From assembly GCF_025370875.1 (NCBI RefSeq), contig NZ_JAMXFD010000002.1:194218-258217 (forward strand): a DNA stretch of 64,000 nt, written 5' to 3'. Position numbers and translations under genes: made by a program. This DNA is from Laspinema palackyanum D2c (GTDB taxonomy: Bacteria; Cyanobacteriota; Cyanobacteriia; Cyanobacteriales; Laspinemataceae). Position 1 is the first letter of the stretch; the number at the start of each line of letters is the position of its first letter. Under the pieces are notes generated by a model that did not search any database, had not been told where the DNA came from, and saw nothing but the letters and a program-made list of their open reading frames with translations. Positions 15,766 to 63,562 of the stretch are shown here, in pieces.

Positions 15766-16137
15766 ATGAGCAGCACCACACTAAATAAGATGAAGACAAT
15801 CTTCGGATTGGGTGCTGCCGTATCTTTAAGCGCAGCGCTACTTCCGGCGACTTCGATCGCCGCTGCCGCACAGGGTATGTCAGCAGCAGCTCAACAGCAA
15901 GCCCTAACTGGAGTTGACCCACAAGGACCGATTAGTCACCAATCGGGACAAACTCAACCGGGTCAGATGATGCAACCGGGTCAGATGATGCAACCGGGTC
16001 AGATGATGCACCACTGTCCCATGATGCAACCGGGTCAGATGATGCAACCGCGTCAAATGCAGCCGGGTCAGATGATGCAACCGGGTCAAATGCAGCCGGG
16101 TCAGATGAGGCAACCGGGTCAGAGGGAAGGTGAATAA
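15766..16137 (+). CDS. Exported methionine-rich QPGQM tandem-repeat protein
   Basis: 123 residues. The N-terminal 33 residues are a signal peptide very like that of the upstream SH3 protein (MKTIFGLGAAVSLSAALLPA). The mature part is low complexity: repeats of MMQPGQ and MQPGQ, interrupted once by MMHHCPMM. The coding repeat has an 18-bp unit. A ribosome binding site (CAGGAGAAT) precedes the ATG. No domain is recognised. The Met-x-x-Met spacing with His-His-Cys is reminiscent of periplasmic copper-binding Met motifs, but that is inference only. No transmembrane segment is seen beyond the leader. The gene ends at a strong terminator. Confidence 0.72.
   Translation: MSSTTLNKMKTIFGLGAAVSLSAALLPATSIAAAAQGMSAAAQQQALTGVDPQGPISHQSGQTQPGQMMQPGQMMQPGQMMHHCPMMQPGQMMQPRQMQPGQMMQPGQMQPGQMRQPGQREGE
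15957..16125 (+). repeat. 18-bp tandem repeat array inside a coding region
   Basis: Units of CCGGGTCAGATGATGCAA recur about ten times, some shortened to 12-15 bp by loss of one ATG codon. All length changes are multiples of three, so the frame is kept. The pattern is consistent with slippage. Confidence 0.9.
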
Positions 16138-57367: not shown

Positions 57368-58780
57368 ATGATAGCAAACGAGGCGATCGCCTTAGAAACC
57401 GCACCCTCTTTCAACACTGAACCCGGAGGCAACGACCCCCATCGCTTTGATGTTCGCGAAGCTTGGTATCCCGTCTATTATCTCCAAGATTTGGACCCGT
57501 CCAAAATCATGAGATTTACTCTATTGGGAGTAGACTTAGCCATTTGGTGGGATAAAACCGGGCAGTCTTGGCGGGCATTTGAAGATAAATGTCCCCACCG
57601 TCTCGCACCTCTATCCGAGGGCAGAATTAATGAAAAAGGTTGGATAGAATGTCCCTATCATGGATGGGCTTTTTCCGCAACCGGCAAGTGCGAAACGATT
57701 CCCCAACAGAATGAAGGCGGCAAAGCAGAACAGTCAGAACGAGCCTGCGTGAGAAACTTTCCCACCGCAGAACATCAGGGATTGTTATTCGTATATGCGG
57801 GGAATCCGGAGAATGCAACACAGACAAAAGTTCCCTTGATTGACCCCTTGGAAGAATCCCCGGAAAAGTGGGTTTGTTTAAACACCTTTCGCGACTTACC
57901 CTATGATGCACTCACTCTATTAGAAAATGTTCTCGATGCCAGTCATATCCCCTATACCCATCATCGTACCGTTGGCAACCGTTCCACTGCTAGCAAGGTT
58001 GACTTGGAAGTGATTGCTTCTGGAAAACAAGGATTTGAAGGATTCTGGGAAGAAGGACCGCGCAAAGGCACTTTAGGCAGTCAGCAGACCCATTTCATCG
58101 CCCCGGGACTGATGTGGCATGACCTCACCTCCAAGCAATTTGGCAGAACGATGACAGTTGTTTATGCAACGCCAATTCGCAAAGGAGAATGTCGATTATT
58201 TGCCCGATTTCCCTTCCAGTTTGCCTCAAAAGTTCCAGCAACTTTTATTAAATTAACCCCGGAGTGGTATTCTCATATTGGACAGAATGCTATCTTGGAA
58301 GATGACCAGATTTTTCTATACCATCAAGAGCGATATTTAGAGGCAGCCGGAGGGAGTGAGAGAATTGCTAAAGCCTTTTATCTGCCCACAAAAGCGGATT
58401 TGTTTGTGCTGGCATTTCGGAAGTGGGTGAATGAGTATGACGCCGATCCCTTTCCTGGGGAATCCTTTCCACCGTTGCGATCGCGCCAAGAATTACTCGA
58501 TCGCTATCATTCCCACACCATCCATTGCCGCAGTTGTTCCACCGCCTTGCGCCGCATCCAGAAACTGCGAGAACTGGCGGGGATTTTGGCGGCGATCGCC
58601 TGGATAACCGCCCCCTTATTAACCGTAATCGCCACCGAAAACACCGTTCCCACCGTTGCCATTTCCACCAGCATTACCCTGGCCCTAAGTGCGCTCTGGT
58701 GGGGATTAGGTAAGTTAGAACGCCGGTTCTACGAAGGGCGAGATATCCCGCCTAGGAATCTGCCGGAGAAGAAGAAGTAG
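57368..58780 (+). CDS. Rieske non-heme oxygenase, pheophorbide a oxygenase/Tic55-like
   Basis: 470 residues. The Rieske cluster ligands are Cys75/His77 (CPHRLAPLSEG) and Cys95/His98 (CPYHGWAF). The mononuclear iron ligands are His193/His198 in NVLDASHIPYTHH, with bridging Asp190. The PaO/Tic55/CAO group also shows a late CxxC: Cys387/Cys390 in HTIHCRSCSTAL, followed by two C-terminal hydrophobic segments (about 400-450) as in membrane-bound PaO relatives. In plants PaO opens the chlorophyll macrocycle; cyanobacterial homologues have unproven substrates, so a tetrapyrrole or other hydrophobic ligand is only a guess. No reductase gene is adjacent. Confidence 0.9.
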   Translation: MIANEAIALETAPSFNTEPGGNDPHRFDVREAWYPVYYLQDLDPSKIMRFTLLGVDLAIWWDKTGQSWRAFEDKCPHRLAPLSEGRINEKGWIECPYHGWAFSATGKCETIPQQNEGGKAEQSERACVRNFPTAEHQGLLFVYAGNPENATQTKVPLIDPLEESPEKWVCLNTFRDLPYDALTLLENVLDASHIPYTHHRTVGNRSTASKVDLEVIASGKQGFEGFWEEGPRKGTLGSQQTHFIAPGLMWHDLTSKQFGRTMTVVYATPIRKGECRLFARFPFQFASKVPATFIKLTPEWYSHIGQNAILEDDQIFLYHQERYLEAAGGSERIAKAFYLPTKADLFVLAFRKWVNEYDADPFPGESFPPLRSRQELLDRYHSHTIHCRSCSTALRRIQKLRELAGILAAIAWITAPLLTVIATENTVPTVAISTSITLALSALWWGLGKLERRFYEGRDIPPRNLPEKKK

Positions 58781-58782
58781 TT

Positions 58783-59193
58783 GCAACAACCGGCGGGGTG
58801 GCCACAACCGGCGGGGGATTTATCCCCCGCCTAACAGCTAAAGTCGTCTAAAGACGACTGCAAGTCTTGTCCCGTGGTATTTTCAGTTGGTTTCAACCGA
58901 CATCTTGCACCCGTTGCCACAACCGGCGGGGTGGCCACAACCGGCGGGGGATAAATCCCCCGCCTAACAGCTAAAGTCGTCTAAAGACGACTGCAAGTCT
59001 TGTCCCGTGGTATTTTCAGTTGGTTTCAACCGACATCTTGCACCCGTTGCCACAACCGGCGGGGGATAAATCGATTGGCGGCCTCATAGAATCAAGTCTA
59101 AAGACGACTGCAAGTCTTATACCGTGGGGCTTTCAGTCGGTTTCGACCGACTTTAGCTATTAGGCGGGGGATTTATCCCCCGCCGGTTGTTGC
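58783..59193. repeat. Repeat array: two 133-bp units within inverted ends
   Basis: Unit 1 (58787-58919) and unit 2 (58920-59052) are nearly identical: both hold ACAACCGGCGGGG, AAAGTCGTCTAAAGACGACT and GGTTTCAACCGACATC. A diverged third unit ends in the inverted CCCCGCCGGTTGTTGC. The outer ends (58783-58798, 59178-59193) are exact inverted copies. It contains several nested palindromes and no gene. It fills the gap between the oxygenase and the WD40 gene. Confidence 0.85.
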
Positions 59194-59260
59194 TACCCAT
59201 CAGGGTCATTTTATGCTATACCCAAACTAGGTGAAAATCCCCTCTGCCGACCCTATTGCT

Positions 59261-62200
59261 ATGACAAACCCCCGCGATTTCCTGAAGACCCACAAACTGC
59301 TCATCGGTGGCACCGCTATATTATCATTAGCCGCCTTGGGTTGCGGTCATGTTCCTGGAATTTTAGCCGCAAAATATGCCGTGGATGCCGTTGCCGTTTC
59401 CAACTTCCTCGGCAATGTGCTATCGGGCATGACTGCCAATAACTTTGGCGCATTAATCGATAGATTACGCAGCAATCCCGATATCTTAAAGAATCAAGAC
59501 TTAGGGAGGGCAACAGGAGAGGCGATCGCCCTGGGGATTCGCGCCGTTGCCGATGAGAAAGAGTTTACCAAATCGCAGCAGAAGATATTACGCGCTTTGG
59601 CAGATAAAACCGTTGACTATTGGCTGAAAACTGACTCCAGCAAACTTCCCGACGAAAAGTTATCCCCCCTGGACGAGAGTCAGATTCGCTATGCCTTTTC
59701 TGCCAATGCCGGAGACTATGACAATCTACGGGTATTAGACGAACCGCAGTGGGAAATTGTTGTCCGAGGGTTGATGCAGCAGCATTTGGGGGCAGATGTA
59801 GATCTGGAAAAGTATGAACCGGCAATTGAGGCGCTCGCCCATCACCTGAACCAGAGATTTGCCACAAACCTGCGGGAAGTGTTGGCAGATGATGCCGTGG
59901 GGAAACAGGCATTTAAGAAGATGCTGTTAGACTTACAGCGAGAAACCGTGGGGATATTGCGGCACATCTGCGATCGCATCGACGAACTCCCCAATAAAAC
60001 CGAACTCACCGCCCTATTTGGCGAACTTGAAACCGCATTACGCCAAGATAACCAGCAACAAATCCGCCTCTCAAAACAAATCTTAGCCCACCTACAACAA
60101 TCCTCCCCATCCTACCCATCCTACCCATCTCCCCCATCTCCCCTCTACAACGTCCCCAATCTCCCCCCAAAATTCCTCCCTCGCCCGGAAGAACTGGCCC
60201 AAATCAAGCAGAAACTCCTCGGAAACGAGAGTCAGAAACTGGTAATGACCGGGGTTTCCCAGCGCGTGGGGGTGCAGGGGATGGGTGGCATCGGCAAAAC
60301 CCTGTTAGCTGCCGCAGTCGCGCAAGAGGAGGAAGTGCAGCGACAGTTTCCCGATGGAGTGATGTGGGTGACCCTGGGTCAAACCCCGGATATAGTGACG
60401 CGACAAACCGACATTGCCGGTTACCTCCTGGGAAATCGTCCCTATTTTGAAGATATCCCCCAAGGGAAAGCGGAACTCCGAAAATTGCTGGCGGATAAAG
60501 CCTGTTTGTTGATTTTAGATGATGTCTGGCAGATGCCCCATGCCGCCGCATTTGACGTTTTAGGGACCCATTGTCAGCTATTGCTGACCACTCGGGATGC
60601 CGCATTGATTACCGGATTCGGGGCACAGGGGCATGAAGTCGGGTTACTCACCGAAGCTCAAGCATTAGGGTTGCTGGCGCAGTGGGCGGGGGAACATTGG
60701 GAAACTTTGCCCCCGGAAGCGGCAGAAGTAGCGCGGGAGTGCGGGTATTTGCCCTTAGCGGTGGCGATTTGTGGGGCGATGGTAGCTGGGGAACCCGCCA
60801 ATCGCTGGCAAAACGTCTTACATAAATTGCAAACAGCGGATTTAGAGAAACTGCACCAGGATTTCCCAGATTATCCTTATCCCAACTTATTCAAAGCACT
60901 CCAAGTCAGCGTCGATGCACTTCCTCCAGCGATGGCACAGCGATATCTGGATTTTGGCATTTTTCCCGAAGATACCCCCATCCCGGAAGCAGTGTTAGTC
61001 GGATTTTGGGCCAGGGAGGGGTTAACGGAATATGATGTCCAGGATGTAGTGGATACCCTAGTGAAACGGTCCCTCGCCTTCCGCGATTCCCAGGGGCGGA
61101 TCACCCTCCATGACTTGCAGTTGGACTATGTGCGAAAACAGGTGGGGGACATTTCCCGGGTACAGGAACGGTTTTTAAATAGCTATCGCCAGCGCTATCC
61201 CCAGGGATATCACACCGTGGAGGATGATGGCTATTTTTTCCACCATTTAATCACCCATCACCTGCAACACCGCCCCGAGGAAATCCGCCACCTGCTGTTA
61301 CACTTTCCCTGGTTACAAGCGAAACTGGATGCAACGGATGTCAAGGCATTGCTGATGGATTTTGAGTCAGTTCACAGGGGAGAGGCCGGAACCAGAGACC
61401 CCCTGAGATTGCTGGAAAGTGCCATTCGCAACTCGGCACATATATTAGGGGAAGATAAGACGCAACTAGCAGGACAACTGCTAGGGCGGTTGCTGTCATT
61501 TGTCTCGCCTTCTCCTGTGCCTGTGTCAGAGTCTCGCTTTTTCTGGGAAAAAATGCCGCTTCTGCGGCCGTATTTACCGAAACATTCCCAGACCCCAGCA
61601 GAAAAACGGAGCCAACTCCTCTTTTCCCCCTTTTTTAAGGGGAACCAGGCGGAATCTGAGCTTTCTAGGGAAGGTACAGGAGAATCAGCAGCCACAACAG
61701 CCCCGGAAATTGAGCAACTCCTCACTCAGGCAAAAAATTACCAGGGAAAACCCTGGTTTCGCCCTCTCAGCCCCAGTCTTAACCCAGCAGGCGGGGCGCT
61801 GCTGCGTACCCTCATTGGACATCATAGCTTGGTATATGCAGTGACCATCACCCCGGATGGGAAACAAGCGGTTTCGGCATCAGAGGATAAGACCCTGAAA
61901 CTGTGGGATTTGGCAACGGGGTCGGAACTGGCCACCCTCACTGGGCATAGTAACTCAGTATATGCAGTGGCCATCACCCCGGACGGCAAACAAGCGCTTT
62001 CCGCATCATCGGATAACACCCTAAAACTATGGGATTTGGCAAGGGGAGAGGAACTGGCCACCCTTTCGGGCCATAGTAACTCGGTATATGCAGTGGCCAT
62101 CACCCCGGACGGGAAACAAGCGGTTTCCGCATCATCGGATAACACCCTAAAACTGTGGGATTTGGCAACGGGAGAAGAACTCGCCACTCTCTGGCATACT

Positions 62201-63562
62201 ACTAGCCCAGTAAATGCAGTAGCCATCAGCCCGGACGGGAAACAAGCGGTTTCCGCATCATCGGATAACACCCTAAAACTGTGGGATTTGGCAACGGGAG
62301 AAGAACTCGCCACCCTCACCGGGCATGATGACTGGGTAAATGCAGTGGCCATCAGCCCGGACGGGAAACAAGCGGTTTCGGCATCTTTGGATAACACCCT
62401 AAAACTGTGGGATTTGGTAACGGGGTCGGAACTCGCCACTCTCTGGCATACTAGCCCAGTAAATGCAGTAGCCATCAGCCCGGACGGGAAACAAGCGGTT
62501 TCGGCATCTTTGGATAACACCCTAAAACTGTGGGATTTGGTAACGGGAGAAGAACTTGCCACCCTCGCCGGACATAGTTACTCGGTAAATGCAGTGGCGA
62601 TCGCCCCGGACGGGAAACACGCGGTTTCCGCATCCTGGGATAACACTCTGAAACTGTGGGATTTGGACAGGGGAGAGGAACTCGCCACCCTCACCGGGCA
62701 TAGTGCCGACGTAATCGCAGTGGCAATCACCCCGGACGGGAAACAAGCGGTTTCCGCATCATCCACATCATCGGATAAGATGAAACTGTGGGATTTAGCG
62801 ACAGGATCGGAACTGACCACTCTGACCGGGCATAGTAGCCCAGTAAAAGCAGTGGCCATCACCCCGGACGGGAAACAAGCGGTTTCGGCATCCTGGGGTA
62901 AGACCCTGAAATTGTGGGATTGGGGAACGGGAGAGGAACTGGCTACCCTCACTGGGCATAGTAGCTGGGTAAATGCAGTGGCCATCACCCCAGACGGCAA
63001 ACAAGCGCTTTCCGCATCCGAGGATAACACACTAAAACTGTGGGATTTGGCGACGGGGTCGGAACTGGCCACCCTCACCGGGCATAGTAGCCCAGTAAAA
63101 GCAGTGGCAATCACCCCGGACGGGAAACAAGCGGTTTCGGCATCGGGGGATAAGACCCTGAAACTGTGGGATTTGGCAACGGGGTCGGAACTGGCCACCC
63201 TCATCGGGCATAGTGCCGACGTAATCGCAGTGGCAATCACCCCGGACGGGAAACAAGCGGTTTCGGCATCAGAGGATACCACCCTGAAACTGTGGGATTT
63301 GGGAAGGGGAGAGGAACTGGCCACCCTCACCGGGCATAGAAGCTTTGTACAAGCAGTGGCCATCACCCCAGACGGAAAACAAGCGGTTTCGGCATCTATG
63401 GATAACACCCTGAAACTCTGGAATTTGGCGACGGGAGATGTCGTTGCCAGTTTTGGGGGTGACGGTGTGTTATTCTGTTGTGCGATTGCACCGAATGGGG
63501 TGACGGTGGTGGCGGGTGAGGCGTCGGGGCGGGTGCATTTTTTGCGGTTGGAGGGGGTGTGA
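59261..63562 (+). CDS. Apaf-1-like STAND ATPase: hydrophobic N-terminus, NB-ARC, fourteen WD40 repeats
   Basis: 1433 residues from ATG 59261; a GTG at 59231 would add ten. The N-terminal 250 residues start with a hydrophobic stretch (LLIGGTAILSLAALGCG) and are otherwise helical and unrecognised. A proline/serine linker (about 285-300) leads to NB-ARC: Walker A GMGGIGKT (340-347), Walker B LLILDDVW, sensor TTRD, GYLPLAV and an MHD-like LHD. A helical part (about 560-840) precedes fourteen 42-residue WD40 blades (about 847-1433), nearly identical in sequence (SPDGKQAVSAS...LKLWDL), enough for two seven-bladed propellers. STAND proteins assemble on ligand sensing; here the propellers would be the sensor and the N-terminus the effector (inference). 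Confidence 0.9.
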   Translation: MTNPRDFLKTHKLLIGGTAILSLAALGCGHVPGILAAKYAVDAVAVSNFLGNVLSGMTANNFGALIDRLRSNPDILKNQDLGRATGEAIALGIRAVADEKEFTKSQQKILRALADKTVDYWLKTDSSKLPDEKLSPLDESQIRYAFSANAGDYDNLRVLDEPQWEIVVRGLMQQHLGADVDLEKYEPAIEALAHHLNQRFATNLREVLADDAVGKQAFKKMLLDLQRETVGILRHICDRIDELPNKTELTALFGELETALRQDNQQQIRLSKQILAHLQQSSPSYPSYPSPPSPLYNVPNLPPKFLPRPEELAQIKQKLLGNESQKLVMTGVSQRVGVQGMGGIGKTLLAAAVAQEEEVQRQFPDGVMWVTLGQTPDIVTRQTDIAGYLLGNRPYFEDIPQGKAELRKLLADKACLLILDDVWQMPHAAAFDVLGTHCQLLLTTRDAALITGFGAQGHEVGLLTEAQALGLLAQWAGEHWETLPPEAAEVARECGYLPLAVAICGAMVAGEPANRWQNVLHKLQTADLEKLHQDFPDYPYPNLFKALQVSVDALPPAMAQRYLDFGIFPEDTPIPEAVLVGFWAREGLTEYDVQDVVDTLVKRSLAFRDSQGRITLHDLQLDYVRKQVGDISRVQERFLNSYRQRYPQGYHTVEDDGYFFHHLITHHLQHRPEEIRHLLLHFPWLQAKLDATDVKALLMDFESVHRGEAGTRDPLRLLESAIRNSAHILGEDKTQLAGQLLGRLLSFVSPSPVPVSESRFFWEKMPLLRPYLPKHSQTPAEKRSQLLFSPFFKGNQAESELSREGTGESAATTAPEIEQLLTQAKNYQGKPWFRPLSPSLNPAGGALLRTLIGHHSLVYAVTITPDGKQAVSASEDKTLKLWDLATGSELATLTGHSNSVYAVAITPDGKQALSASSDNTLKLWDLARGEELATLSGHSNSVYAVAITPDGKQAVSASSDNTLKLWDLATGEELATLWHTTSPVNAVAISPDGKQAVSASSDNTLKLWDLATGEELATLTGHDDWVNAVAISPDGKQAVSASLDNTLKLWDLVTGSELATLWHTSPVNAVAISPDGKQAVSASLDNTLKLWDLVTGEELATLAGHSYSVNAVAIAPDGKHAVSASWDNTLKLWDLDRGEELATLTGHSADVIAVAITPDGKQAVSASSTSSDKMKLWDLATGSELTTLTGHSSPVKAVAITPDGKQAVSASWGKTLKLWDWGTGEELATLTGHSSWVNAVAITPDGKQALSASEDNTLKLWDLATGSELATLTGHSSPVKAVAITPDGKQAVSASGDKTLKLWDLATGSELATLIGHSADVIAVAITPDGKQAVSASEDTTLKLWDLGRGEELATLTGHRSFVQAVAITPDGKQAVSASMDNTLKLWNLATGDVVASFGGDGVLFCCAIAPNGVTVVAGEASGRVHFLRLEGV
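61810..63440 (+). repeat. 126-bp tandem repeat array encoding WD40 blades
   Basis: About thirteen copies of a 126-bp (42-codon) unit with very few silent or coding differences, for example GACGGGAAACAAGCGGTTTC in most units. Two copies are shortened by one to two codons at the start (LWHTSP in place of TGHSSP). Blades 8/12 and 9/11 share loop sequences, suggesting block duplication. Confidence 0.92.

What the first reader, a model, noticed from the sequence alone, without database searches (positions are those of the whole stretch)
59261..63562. Apaf-1-like NB-ARC protein with fourteen near-identical WD40 blades
The domain order (NB-ARC ATPase, helical part, two seven-bladed propellers) parallels animal Apaf-1. 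The 126-bp units are so alike at DNA level that the array must be recently amplified or homogenised by gene conversion, while loop residues at blade starts (NSV, SPV, DWV, ADV, SWV, SFV) vary. That pattern fits a rapidly diversifying sensor surface as known for STAND conflict or immunity proteins. Role in phage defence or programmed death is an inference.
Basis: partly seen in the sequence, partly recalled or inferred. Interest (0 to 1): 0.7.

Follow-up and report, generated by a model that had tools for sequence, protein, structure and literature searches.

The report
Bacterial Apaf-1-like receptor with shuffling blades
A filamentous cyanobacterium carries a protein built like the animal cell-death switch Apaf-1, and its sensing end appears to be reshuffled and rapidly changed at the same few surface positions that fungi vary in their self/non-self receptors, which suggests an immune or conflict sensor whose target is still unknown.

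Summary
The gene is real: window 59261-63562 (+), in a filamentous cyanobacterium close to Laspinema. It encodes a helical N-terminal domain, NB-ARC, winged helix, APAF-1-type helical domain and 14 WD40 blades. Apaf-1 is the closest solved switch, WRAP (2YMU) the closest solved array. "Fourteen near-identical" is overstated: 13 similar blades (mean 84% DNA identity) plus a divergent closing one. It is no fresh amplification: blade dS (0.37) exceeds flank dS between species (0.27). Blade order shows no position signal between two syntenic orthologs (78.6 vs 77.7%); one ordinary WD40 gene gives 91-96 vs 55%. Blade numbers are 14, 14, 12. Replacement changes concentrate at four codons known as selected in fungal HNWD receptors: rank 46 of 111,930 sets; dN/dS 1.9 by gene-wide dS, 1.5 by local dS, about 0.3 elsewhere. 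The locus slot is empty in one relative and holds partial matches to candidate defence families in another. The N-terminal domain sits on varied STAND ATPases; membrane action is plausible, unshown. Best reading: a diversifying STAND conflict receptor with unknown ligand. The class is known; this regime, followed at one bacterial locus, is a new variant.

The parts
59261..63562 (+). whole gene (from the ATG; a GTG 30 bases upstream at 59231 is in frame)
   Evidence: syntenic orthologs in G004 and G005 downstream of the Rieske/Pao gene, pieces up to a contig end in G001 and G006
59261..60160 (+). N-terminal all-helical domain with a hydrophobic, charge-free stretch near its start; putative effector or adaptor module
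   Evidence: alignment A1 of 33 sequences; model mean pLDDT 68.9, helical; 19-residue hydrophobic peak >=1.6 in 30 of 33; no PDB fold match with E <= 0.001; NNH2 match at E 0.086, below cut-off
60230..60916 (+). NB-ARC ATPase; Walker A GMGGIGKT at 60278, Walker B region at 60503, TTRD motif at 60578 (motif names recalled)
   Evidence: PF00931 111.8 bits; motif places; Apaf-1 best solved relative
61034..61459 (+). winged helix (LHDLQ at 61106) and APAF-1-type helical domain
   Evidence: APAF-1-like_WHD 20.9 bits (below cut-off 27), APAF1_C 28.9 bits (cut-off 22.8); motif place
61814..63454 (+). 13 similar WD40 repeats of about 126 bp; most variable blade positions 24, 6, 1, 8, 4, 5 by entropy
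63455..63559 (+). divergent closing (14th) blade, recognisable at the end of related arrays
   Evidence: matches in 7 of 8 genomes of the genus, 19 places

Best explanation
It is a bacterial STAND (NB-ARC) receptor that works like Apaf-1 or a fungal HNWD receptor. The double WD40 propeller is the sensor: it binds a foreign or altered protein through residues on the top face. Binding releases the NB-ARC switch, ATP drives oligomerisation, and the oligomer brings N-terminal helical domains together; their hydrophobic starts most likely then act on the membrane and damage or kill the cell, stopping an infection in the filament. Specificity is renewed by two linked processes: recombination between similar blades changes their number and order and keeps the framework alike, and selection favours replacement changes at top-face codons. 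Shown here by sequence: domain architecture, Apaf-1 kinship of the switch, absence of blade register between orthologs, excess replacement at top-face codons, variable occupation of the locus. Inferred: ligand binding, oligomerisation, membrane action, death, defence against phage.
For: Architecture and kinship. Four codons fixed beforehand from fungal HNWD genes (Paoletti 2007, PMC1805685, passages; their codons 7, 9, 25, 27 flank conserved codons 8 and 26, which I equate with our V7 and D25, giving our 6, 8, 24, 26): in this gene they rank 46 of 111,930 sets by replacement differences. dN(four codons)/dS(whole blade) is 1.94, bootstrap 1.16-3.05, about 0.3 elsewhere; in the 10 arrays bootstrapped 10 ratios exceed 1 and 9 lower bounds do. 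Positions 6, 8, 24 are by rule the WD40 top-face hot spots R1-2, R1, D-1 (PMC3419727, passages). No blade register between orthologs: 0.786 same index vs 0.777 all pairs (G000A/G004A), 0.774 vs 0.786 (G000A/G005A), 0.803 vs 0.796 (G004A/G005A); at paralog locus B 0.803 vs 0.805 although flanks differ by dS only 0.118. One ordinary WD40 gene gives 0.959/0.941/0.913 vs 0.55 (5 same-position pairs each). Blade numbers 14, 14, 12; an exact in-frame two-blade difference between two species of one family in a split homolog. Locus A: gene in 5 of 8 genomes (2 of them cut by a contig end), none in G007, other genes in G003, Pao anchor not found in G002. The N-terminal domain is joined to a STAND-type ATPase in 16 of 17 further proteins scanned, one of these (L072) only below cut-off. 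A related core on Acaryochloris plasmids has a CHAT domain in or before the same slot.
Against: No function was tested. dN/dS in recombining repeats is approximate and blades are not independent. Synonymous change at the four codons themselves is also raised in several arrays: with local dS the ratio is 1.47 for this gene and above 1 in 9 of 11 arrays, but 0.91 in G046 and 0.95 in G004S, from only about 2 synonymous sites per pair. Array G009S ranks 7479 of 111,930. Blades do not always group by gene: nearest neighbour in the same gene for 9 of 12 here, but 5 of 10 in G005A and 3 of 8 in G000B. G004A/G005A keep a slight same-index likeness at variable residues, 3.2 of 7 against 2.75. The register control is a single gene. 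No PADLOC model matches the N-terminal/ATPase part; the whole-protein hit HEAT-ARM_XIII lies in the repeats. The matches of the G003 genes to PDC-M02A/B are partial. The N-terminal fold is unmatched and modelled with modest confidence; membrane action is a guess from hydrophobicity, which a buried helix could also explain.
Confidence: 0.66

Rival explanations
1. Allorecognition rather than phage defence: the receptor senses a variable protein of other strains (as HET-E senses HET-C) and kills or arrests cells on contact or transfer between filaments.
For: The variable codons are those of fungal allorecognition receptors; the host's relatives are filamentous (recalled for Laspinema, Phormidium, Oscillatoria; names); fungal reactive alleles are also modelled as double propellers (PMC12222747 section 17).
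Against: No polymorphic partner gene was found, and none was sought; cell fusion is not known in cyanobacteria (recalled). The slot holds partial matches to candidate defence families in G003.
Confidence: 0.15
2. No diversifying selection: the four codons are merely unconstrained surface positions, and unequal recombination keeps the rest alike. The receptor may sense one fixed endogenous signal.
For: Surface positions of WD40 repeats tolerate change; repeats recombine, which weakens dN/dS inference; local dS brings the ratio down to 1.47 here and below 1 in 2 of 11 arrays.
Against: With whole-blade dS all 10 arrays bootstrapped exceed 1, 9 with lower bound above 1; 9 of 11 exceed 1 even with local dS; 10.2 in the Acaryochloris plasmid array. 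94 distinct four-residue combinations among 108 blades.
Confidence: 0.13
3. Regulator of endogenous cell death or stress (an Apaf-1-like switch for, say, damaged photosystems; the upstream neighbour has Rieske and pheophorbide a oxygenase domains).
For: Closest solved switch is Apaf-1; neighbour's domains.
Against: The neighbour is present, 93% identical, in G007, where the slot lacks the gene, and 96% identical in G003, which has other genes there. A fixed endogenous signal would not explain variable top faces.
Confidence: 0.05
4. Assembly artefact: blade number and order are wrong because repeats were misassembled.
For: The genome is a draft of 81 contigs; the paralog array in it holds a run of N; fungal arrays could not be rebuilt from Illumina assemblies (PMC12222747 abstract passage). 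The sequencing method of these genomes is unknown to me.
Against: Blades differ by 16% on average and the frame is intact; G005, listed as 3 contigs, has a like array with 12 blades.
Confidence: 0.03

Closest known systems
Apaf-1 (animal apoptosome protein)
   Same: NB-ARC, winged helix, helical domain and tandem WD40 propellers in the same order; best solved relative of the switch, E 2.6e-39
   Different: No CARD found; the blades here are alike and unregistered between species, whereas Apaf-1 blades are old and distinct (recalled)
WRAP / Npun_R6612 of Nostoc punctiforme (2YMU)
   Same: Cyanobacterial STAND protein with 14 WD40 blades; best solved relative of the array, E 7.9e-161; immune role proposed (PMC9218822, passages)
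   Different: WRAP is a very recent amplification without synonymous change (PMC6805158, passages); here blade dS is 0.37. WRAP's gene is coupled to a TIR-STAND gene; the nearest neighbours here are a Rieske/PaO gene and a PAS kinase
HNWD receptors HET-D/HET-E/HET-R of Podospora
   Same: STAND ATPase plus alike WD40 repeats, concerted evolution, blade-number change, diversification at the equivalent four codons (PMC1805685 passages; PMC12222747 passages and section 17)
   Different: NACHT instead of NB-ARC, HET effector domain, fungal; allorecognition shown by genetics there, nothing shown here
Highly-repetitive WD40 proteins (Hu 2017, PMC5587647)
   Same: High internal identity; diversity at hot-spot sites already noted for the pooled class (section 11)
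   Different: The passages and sections I read show no comparison of one locus across species
CHAT-NB-ARC-APAF1_C-WD40 protein of Acaryochloris sp. 'Moss Beach' plasmids pMB04/pMB06
   Same: About 40% identical core; same top-face pattern in pMB06
   Different: CHAT domain at the N terminus (fused in pMB04, separate upstream gene in pMB06); plasmid-borne

Membership tests
STAND NTPase, AP-ATPase (NB-ARC) class | NB-ARC domain with Walker A and B, winged helix, C-terminal repeat sensor | tested here: met
   PF00931 over cut-off, motifs, WD40 array; winged-helix Pfam match below cut-off but inside the stretch aligned with Apaf-1, which runs to Apaf-1 residue 527
STAND NTPase, AP-ATPase (NB-ARC) class | Ligand-triggered, ATP-dependent oligomerisation | not testable with these tools
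   needs purified protein
Apaf-1 proper | N-terminal CARD that recruits a caspase | tested here: not met
   no Pfam family above cut-off in the N-terminal 323 aa; profile search of solved chains, best E 0.048 to unrelated proteins
Apaf-1 proper | APAF-1 helical domain between NB-ARC/WHD and propellers | tested here: met
   PF17908 28.9 bits, cut-off 22.8
WRAP-type recently amplified propeller | Near-identical blades without synonymous change | tested here: not met
   blade dS 0.366, mean DNA identity 84%
HNWD-type diversifying receptor (as a regime) | Replacement excess at four top-face codons | tested here: met
   weaker with local dS, 1.47 here
HNWD-type diversifying receptor (as a regime) | Concerted evolution: blades group by gene/species, not by position | tested here: met
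   no register signal against one control gene; nearest neighbour in the same gene for 9 of 12 blades here, but 5 of 10 and 3 of 8 in two other arrays
HNWD-type diversifying receptor (as a regime) | Blade-number polymorphism within a species | not testable with these tools
   one genome per species held; between species 14, 14, 12
HNWD family proper | NACHT domain and HET effector | tested here: not met
   NB-ARC instead; no HET match for the N-terminal part at E <= 0.1 nor among the 25 of 51 families shown for the whole protein
Known anti-phage STAND systems (Avs and others in PADLOC) | Match to a PADLOC model over the N-terminal/ATPase part | tested here: not met
   0 families at E <= 0.01 for the first 833 residues

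The most novel reading that the evidence does not exclude
Filamentous cyanobacteria run an anticipatory receptor repertoire made of exchangeable WD40 blades: recombined within and between STAND loci whose ATPases differ (NB-ARC and NACHT), sorted by selection at the very top-face codons used by fungal allorecognition receptors, and feeding a shared membrane-acting N-terminal domain. Bacteria would then have reached, or passed on, the fungal HNWD solution.
Probability: 0.34. Interest if true: 0.82.

Novelty: new variant of a known kind. Interest (0 to 1): 0.6.

Why it matters
Bacterial STAND proteins with alike WD40 blades have been catalogued, and an immune role proposed. Here one locus is followed across species: flanks conserved, blades unregistered, numbers different, change focused on the codons that vary in fungal receptors. 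If the sensor reading holds, it gives a bacterial, genetically simpler model for how a receptor renews its specificity, and ties an Apaf-1-like switch to a conflict role in bacteria. It is directly testable by long-read population sequencing and by swapping arrays between alleles in a laboratory host.

Tried and rejected
Fresh single-blade amplification (as in WRAP): rejected, blade dS is too high. Retroelement-driven hypermutation: PMC10907252 was seen in passages only; I ran no search for a reverse transcriptase, so this is not excluded. Antisense frames of 246 and 349 aa across the array: judged by-products of the repeats, not tested. Identity of the N-terminal domain: Pfam, PDB sequences and Foldseek gave nothing reliable. 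Spread by phage: no match to the first 833 residues in the phage collection at E <= 1e-5. Pfam's many named propeller families I take as generic WD40 hits. Kaur 2020 (PMC7159879) was seen in passages; they did not describe this array type. Literature: ten searches; in what they listed and in what I read I saw no site-by-site selection test on a bacterial NB-ARC/WD40 locus. Dunin-Horkawicz 2014 and Chaudhuri 2008 were not read and are known only through citing papers; PMC2873952 was seen in a listing only. PMC4986451 was seen in passages.

Rows left out of counts: one search used 12 of 13 blades for this gene (blade 8 has an insertion; blade 6 is read with a one-residue overlap at positions 1-3), 10 of 11 for G005A (one missed by the pattern), 8 of 9 detected for G000B (which also has a gap of N), 11 of 13 for G004B, 13 of 14 for G021S. 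G007B, G000S, G017S and G008S were not scored there. G046 (4 blades) was scored but not. Nearest-neighbour counts used arrays of G000, G004 and G005 only. Pfam was run on 17 of the other N-terminal-domain proteins, not on all; L056 of these had no match. In one search one of 6 blades had no full length and was dropped.
Full report
What is there. The frame at 59231-63562 (+) is intact, 1443 aa from a GTG; orthologs in G001, G004 and G005 carry a Met where our ATG at 59261 lies. In order it encodes a helical N-terminal domain (about 300 aa), NB-ARC with Walker A and B motifs, a winged helix, an APAF-1-type helical domain, and a WD40 array. The array holds 13 similar units of about 126 bp and one divergent closing unit. 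Mean pairwise identity of the 13 is 84% in DNA and 78% in protein; 4 of 78 pairs reach 90%.

Host. The window lies in a 7.03 Mb draft genome of 81 contigs. Named close relatives of the gene are in Laspinema palackyanum D2a, Phormidium pseudopriestleyi FRX01, an Oscillatoria MAG and a Phormidium sp. OSCR MAG; Laspinema belongs to Oscillatoriales. That these are filamentous is recalled.

Kinship. Against all solved chains, the ATPase-to-helical segment finds Apaf-1 first (1z6t, E 2.6e-39); the best plant NLR is at 1.8e-22. The array finds WRAP, 2YMU, first (7.9e-161) and Apaf-1 at ranks 8 and 9. The array model (mean pLDDT 83.7, pTM 0.54) matches tandem propellers, 2YMU first, with TM near 0.5 and rmsd 13.5, so two propellers are likely but their arrangement is not fixed. 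The N-terminal domain has no confident sequence or fold match.

Age and shuffling. I compared syntenic orthologs. Gene A lies after the Rieske/Pao gene in G000, G004 and G005, and up to a contig end in G001 and G006. Synonymous divergence of the flanking domains between G000 and G004 is 0.271, but among the blades of G000 it is 0.366 and between the two arrays 0.492, variable codons left out. So the blades are not a fresh amplification; they look like an old set kept alike by exchange. Blades at the same index are hardly more alike than others: 0.786 against 0.777 over all pairs for G000/G004, 0.774 against 0.786 for G000/G005, 0.803 against 0.796 for G004/G005; none of the registers from -3 to +3 stands out. 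At the variable residues G004/G005 keep 3.2 matches of 7 at the same index against 2.75 overall, a slight signal. At the paralog locus B, G004/G005 give 0.803 against 0.805 although flanks differ by dS of only 0.118. The control, one ordinary WD40 gene compared with three relatives, gives 0.959, 0.941, 0.913 against 0.55. Of the 12 blades of this gene scored, 9 have their nearest neighbour in the same gene; the figures for the other arrays are 12 of 13, 5 of 10, 3 of 8, 8 of 11, 11 of 12, 4 of 6 and 12 of 13, so two arrays do not show it. Blade number is 13+1, 13+1 and 11+1 in G000, G004, G005; G005 is listed as 3 contigs. In a split homolog, species of two genera of one family differ by exactly two blades, 84 residues, in frame. 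On two plasmids of one Acaryochloris strain, cores 95% identical over 457 aligned residues carry at least 12 blades and a single blade respectively, each with a closing unit.

Where change falls. Fungal HNWD genes show positive selection at codons 7, 9, 25, 27, flanking codons 8 and 26 that are under purifying selection (PMC1805685, passages). Equating these two with our V7 and D25 gives blade positions 6, 8, 24, 26; by the published rule 6, 8 and 24 are the WD40 top-face hot spots R1-2, R1, D-1 (PMC3419727, passages). I had seen the variable positions by eye before fixing the set, but took its members from the paper. The set ranks 46 of 111,930 four-position sets in this gene by replacement differences. 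dN there over dS of the whole blade is 1.94 (bootstrap 1.16-3.05), about 0.3 elsewhere. Over the 11 arrays the ranks are 46, 52, 96, 23, 56, 63, 248, 16, 2, 7479 and 108; the weak one is G009S. In the 10 arrays bootstrapped, all ratios exceed 1 and 9 lower bounds do. Against this: synonymous change at the four codons is itself raised in several arrays. With local dS, from about 2 sites per pair, the ratio is 1.47 here and above 1 in 9 of 11 arrays, but 0.91 in G046 and 0.95 in G004S. Positions chosen from nine other arrays also mark variable sites of this gene: 0 of 200,000 random six-position sets do as well. The Acaryochloris array, from another order, gives rank 3 and dN/dS 10.2 against 0.44. 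In WRAP the commonest alternation seen in the alignment (W, R, N) falls on the residue after the conserved V, position 8; its few other differences fall elsewhere. All these ratios are approximate, because repeats recombine and pairs are not independent.

Decoupled parts. In each of three genomes the blades of gene A are closer to those of a split NACHT-type system S (dS 0.43-0.60) than to those of its own NB-ARC paralog B (dS 0.98-1.25). Yet the ATPase segment of A is 63-65% identical to that of four B copies over 364 residues, and S, in the copy scanned (L046), carries another ATPase family. Arrays and switches have different histories. I cannot tell exchange from shared array origin.

The N-terminal domain. 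It occurs on NB-ARC/TPR, NACHT/HEAT, iSTAND and split NACHT/WD40 proteins: 16 of 17 further proteins scanned had a STAND-type ATPase match, one of them (L072) only below cut-off; L056 had none. It is found in 50 of 148 genomes of the order. Near its start 30 of 33 family members have a stretch of 19 residues with mean hydropathy 1.6 or more, without charge in 27 of 33. In the Acaryochloris relatives a CHAT domain stands at the N terminus of, or directly before, the related core. A shared, exchangeable signalling end is therefore well supported; that it acts on membranes is inference.

The locus. Between the Pao gene and a DNA methylase or the PAS kinase: G000 has gene A and no methylase match of note (best E 0.42); G004 and G005 have gene A and the methylase; G007 has no frame of 100 aa or more between Pao and the methylase match; G003 has two genes with partial matches to PADLOC families PDC-M02B (3.6e-17, first 131 residues) and PDC-M02A (5.7e-12, last 80 residues). 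That PDC stands for candidate defence families is recalled. Pao evolves slowly, dN 0.023, dS 0.232 between G000 and G004; gene A's flank has dN 0.117, dS 0.271. Presence-absence and replacement fit a conflict role.

How it most likely works. Top-face residues of the double propeller bind a foreign protein; the Apaf-1-like switch opens and oligomerises; the N-terminal domains act, probably on the membrane; the cell stops or dies. Binding, assembly and outcome are untested. The main rival is allorecognition with the same machinery.

Against what is known. Class members were known: WRAP and its relatives with a proposed immune role (PMC9218822, passages; PMC6805158, passages), highly repetitive WD40s with hot-spot diversity (PMC5587647 sections 10 and 11), and the fungal regime (PMC1805685; PMC4986451; PMC12222747). 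New here, as far as my ten literature searches show, is following one bacterial locus across species with a control, the same codons, the decoupled array, the shared N-terminal domain and the slot. I file it as a new variant of a known kind.

Noticed in passing
58780-59064: Two copies of a 133-bp unit (98% alike) with palindromic parts just upstream of the gene; 133 matching places in the genome, so a dispersed repeat. A related repeat stands beside Pao in G003, which lacks the gene there.
   Followed up: partly
L044-L050, L059, L072: A two-gene form: gene 1 has the N-terminal domain and, where scanned, a NACHT/AAA-type ATPase; gene 2 has the helical domain and a WD40 array. The genes overlap by 4 bases in L046.
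   Followed up: partly
L102:1281-2934: In G003 the slot of this gene holds two genes with partial matches to PADLOC families PDC-M02A and PDC-M02B; the latter gene also has a sub-threshold interleukin-1 match.
   Followed up: no
L034:8448-9338 and L033:6816-7706: A type II-like DNA methylase stands next to the gene in G004 and G005 and beside the slot in G003 and G007 (there in a shortened or broken frame), but not in the window's genome.
   Followed up: partly
L042:5280-5759, L043:6197-6646, L117: Genomes of another family carry remnants (G021, G049) or a copy with a frame break in the array (G089) of a gene 72-80% identical to parts of this one, which suggests transfer followed by decay.
   Followed up: no
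L120 and L121: Between these two relatives the array (outside variable codons) differs less at synonymous sites (0.03) than the segment before it (0.16), as if the array alone had been exchanged.
   Followed up: no
L133, L134: Acaryochloris plasmids pMB06 and pMB04: CHAT, NB-ARC, APAF1_C and WD40, with a gene of CHAT and TIR matches next door in pMB06; one array of at least 12 blades, the other a single blade.
   Followed up: partly
15940-16123: Short tandem repeat of 18 bp inside a 123-aa frame (15766-16137).
   Followed up: no
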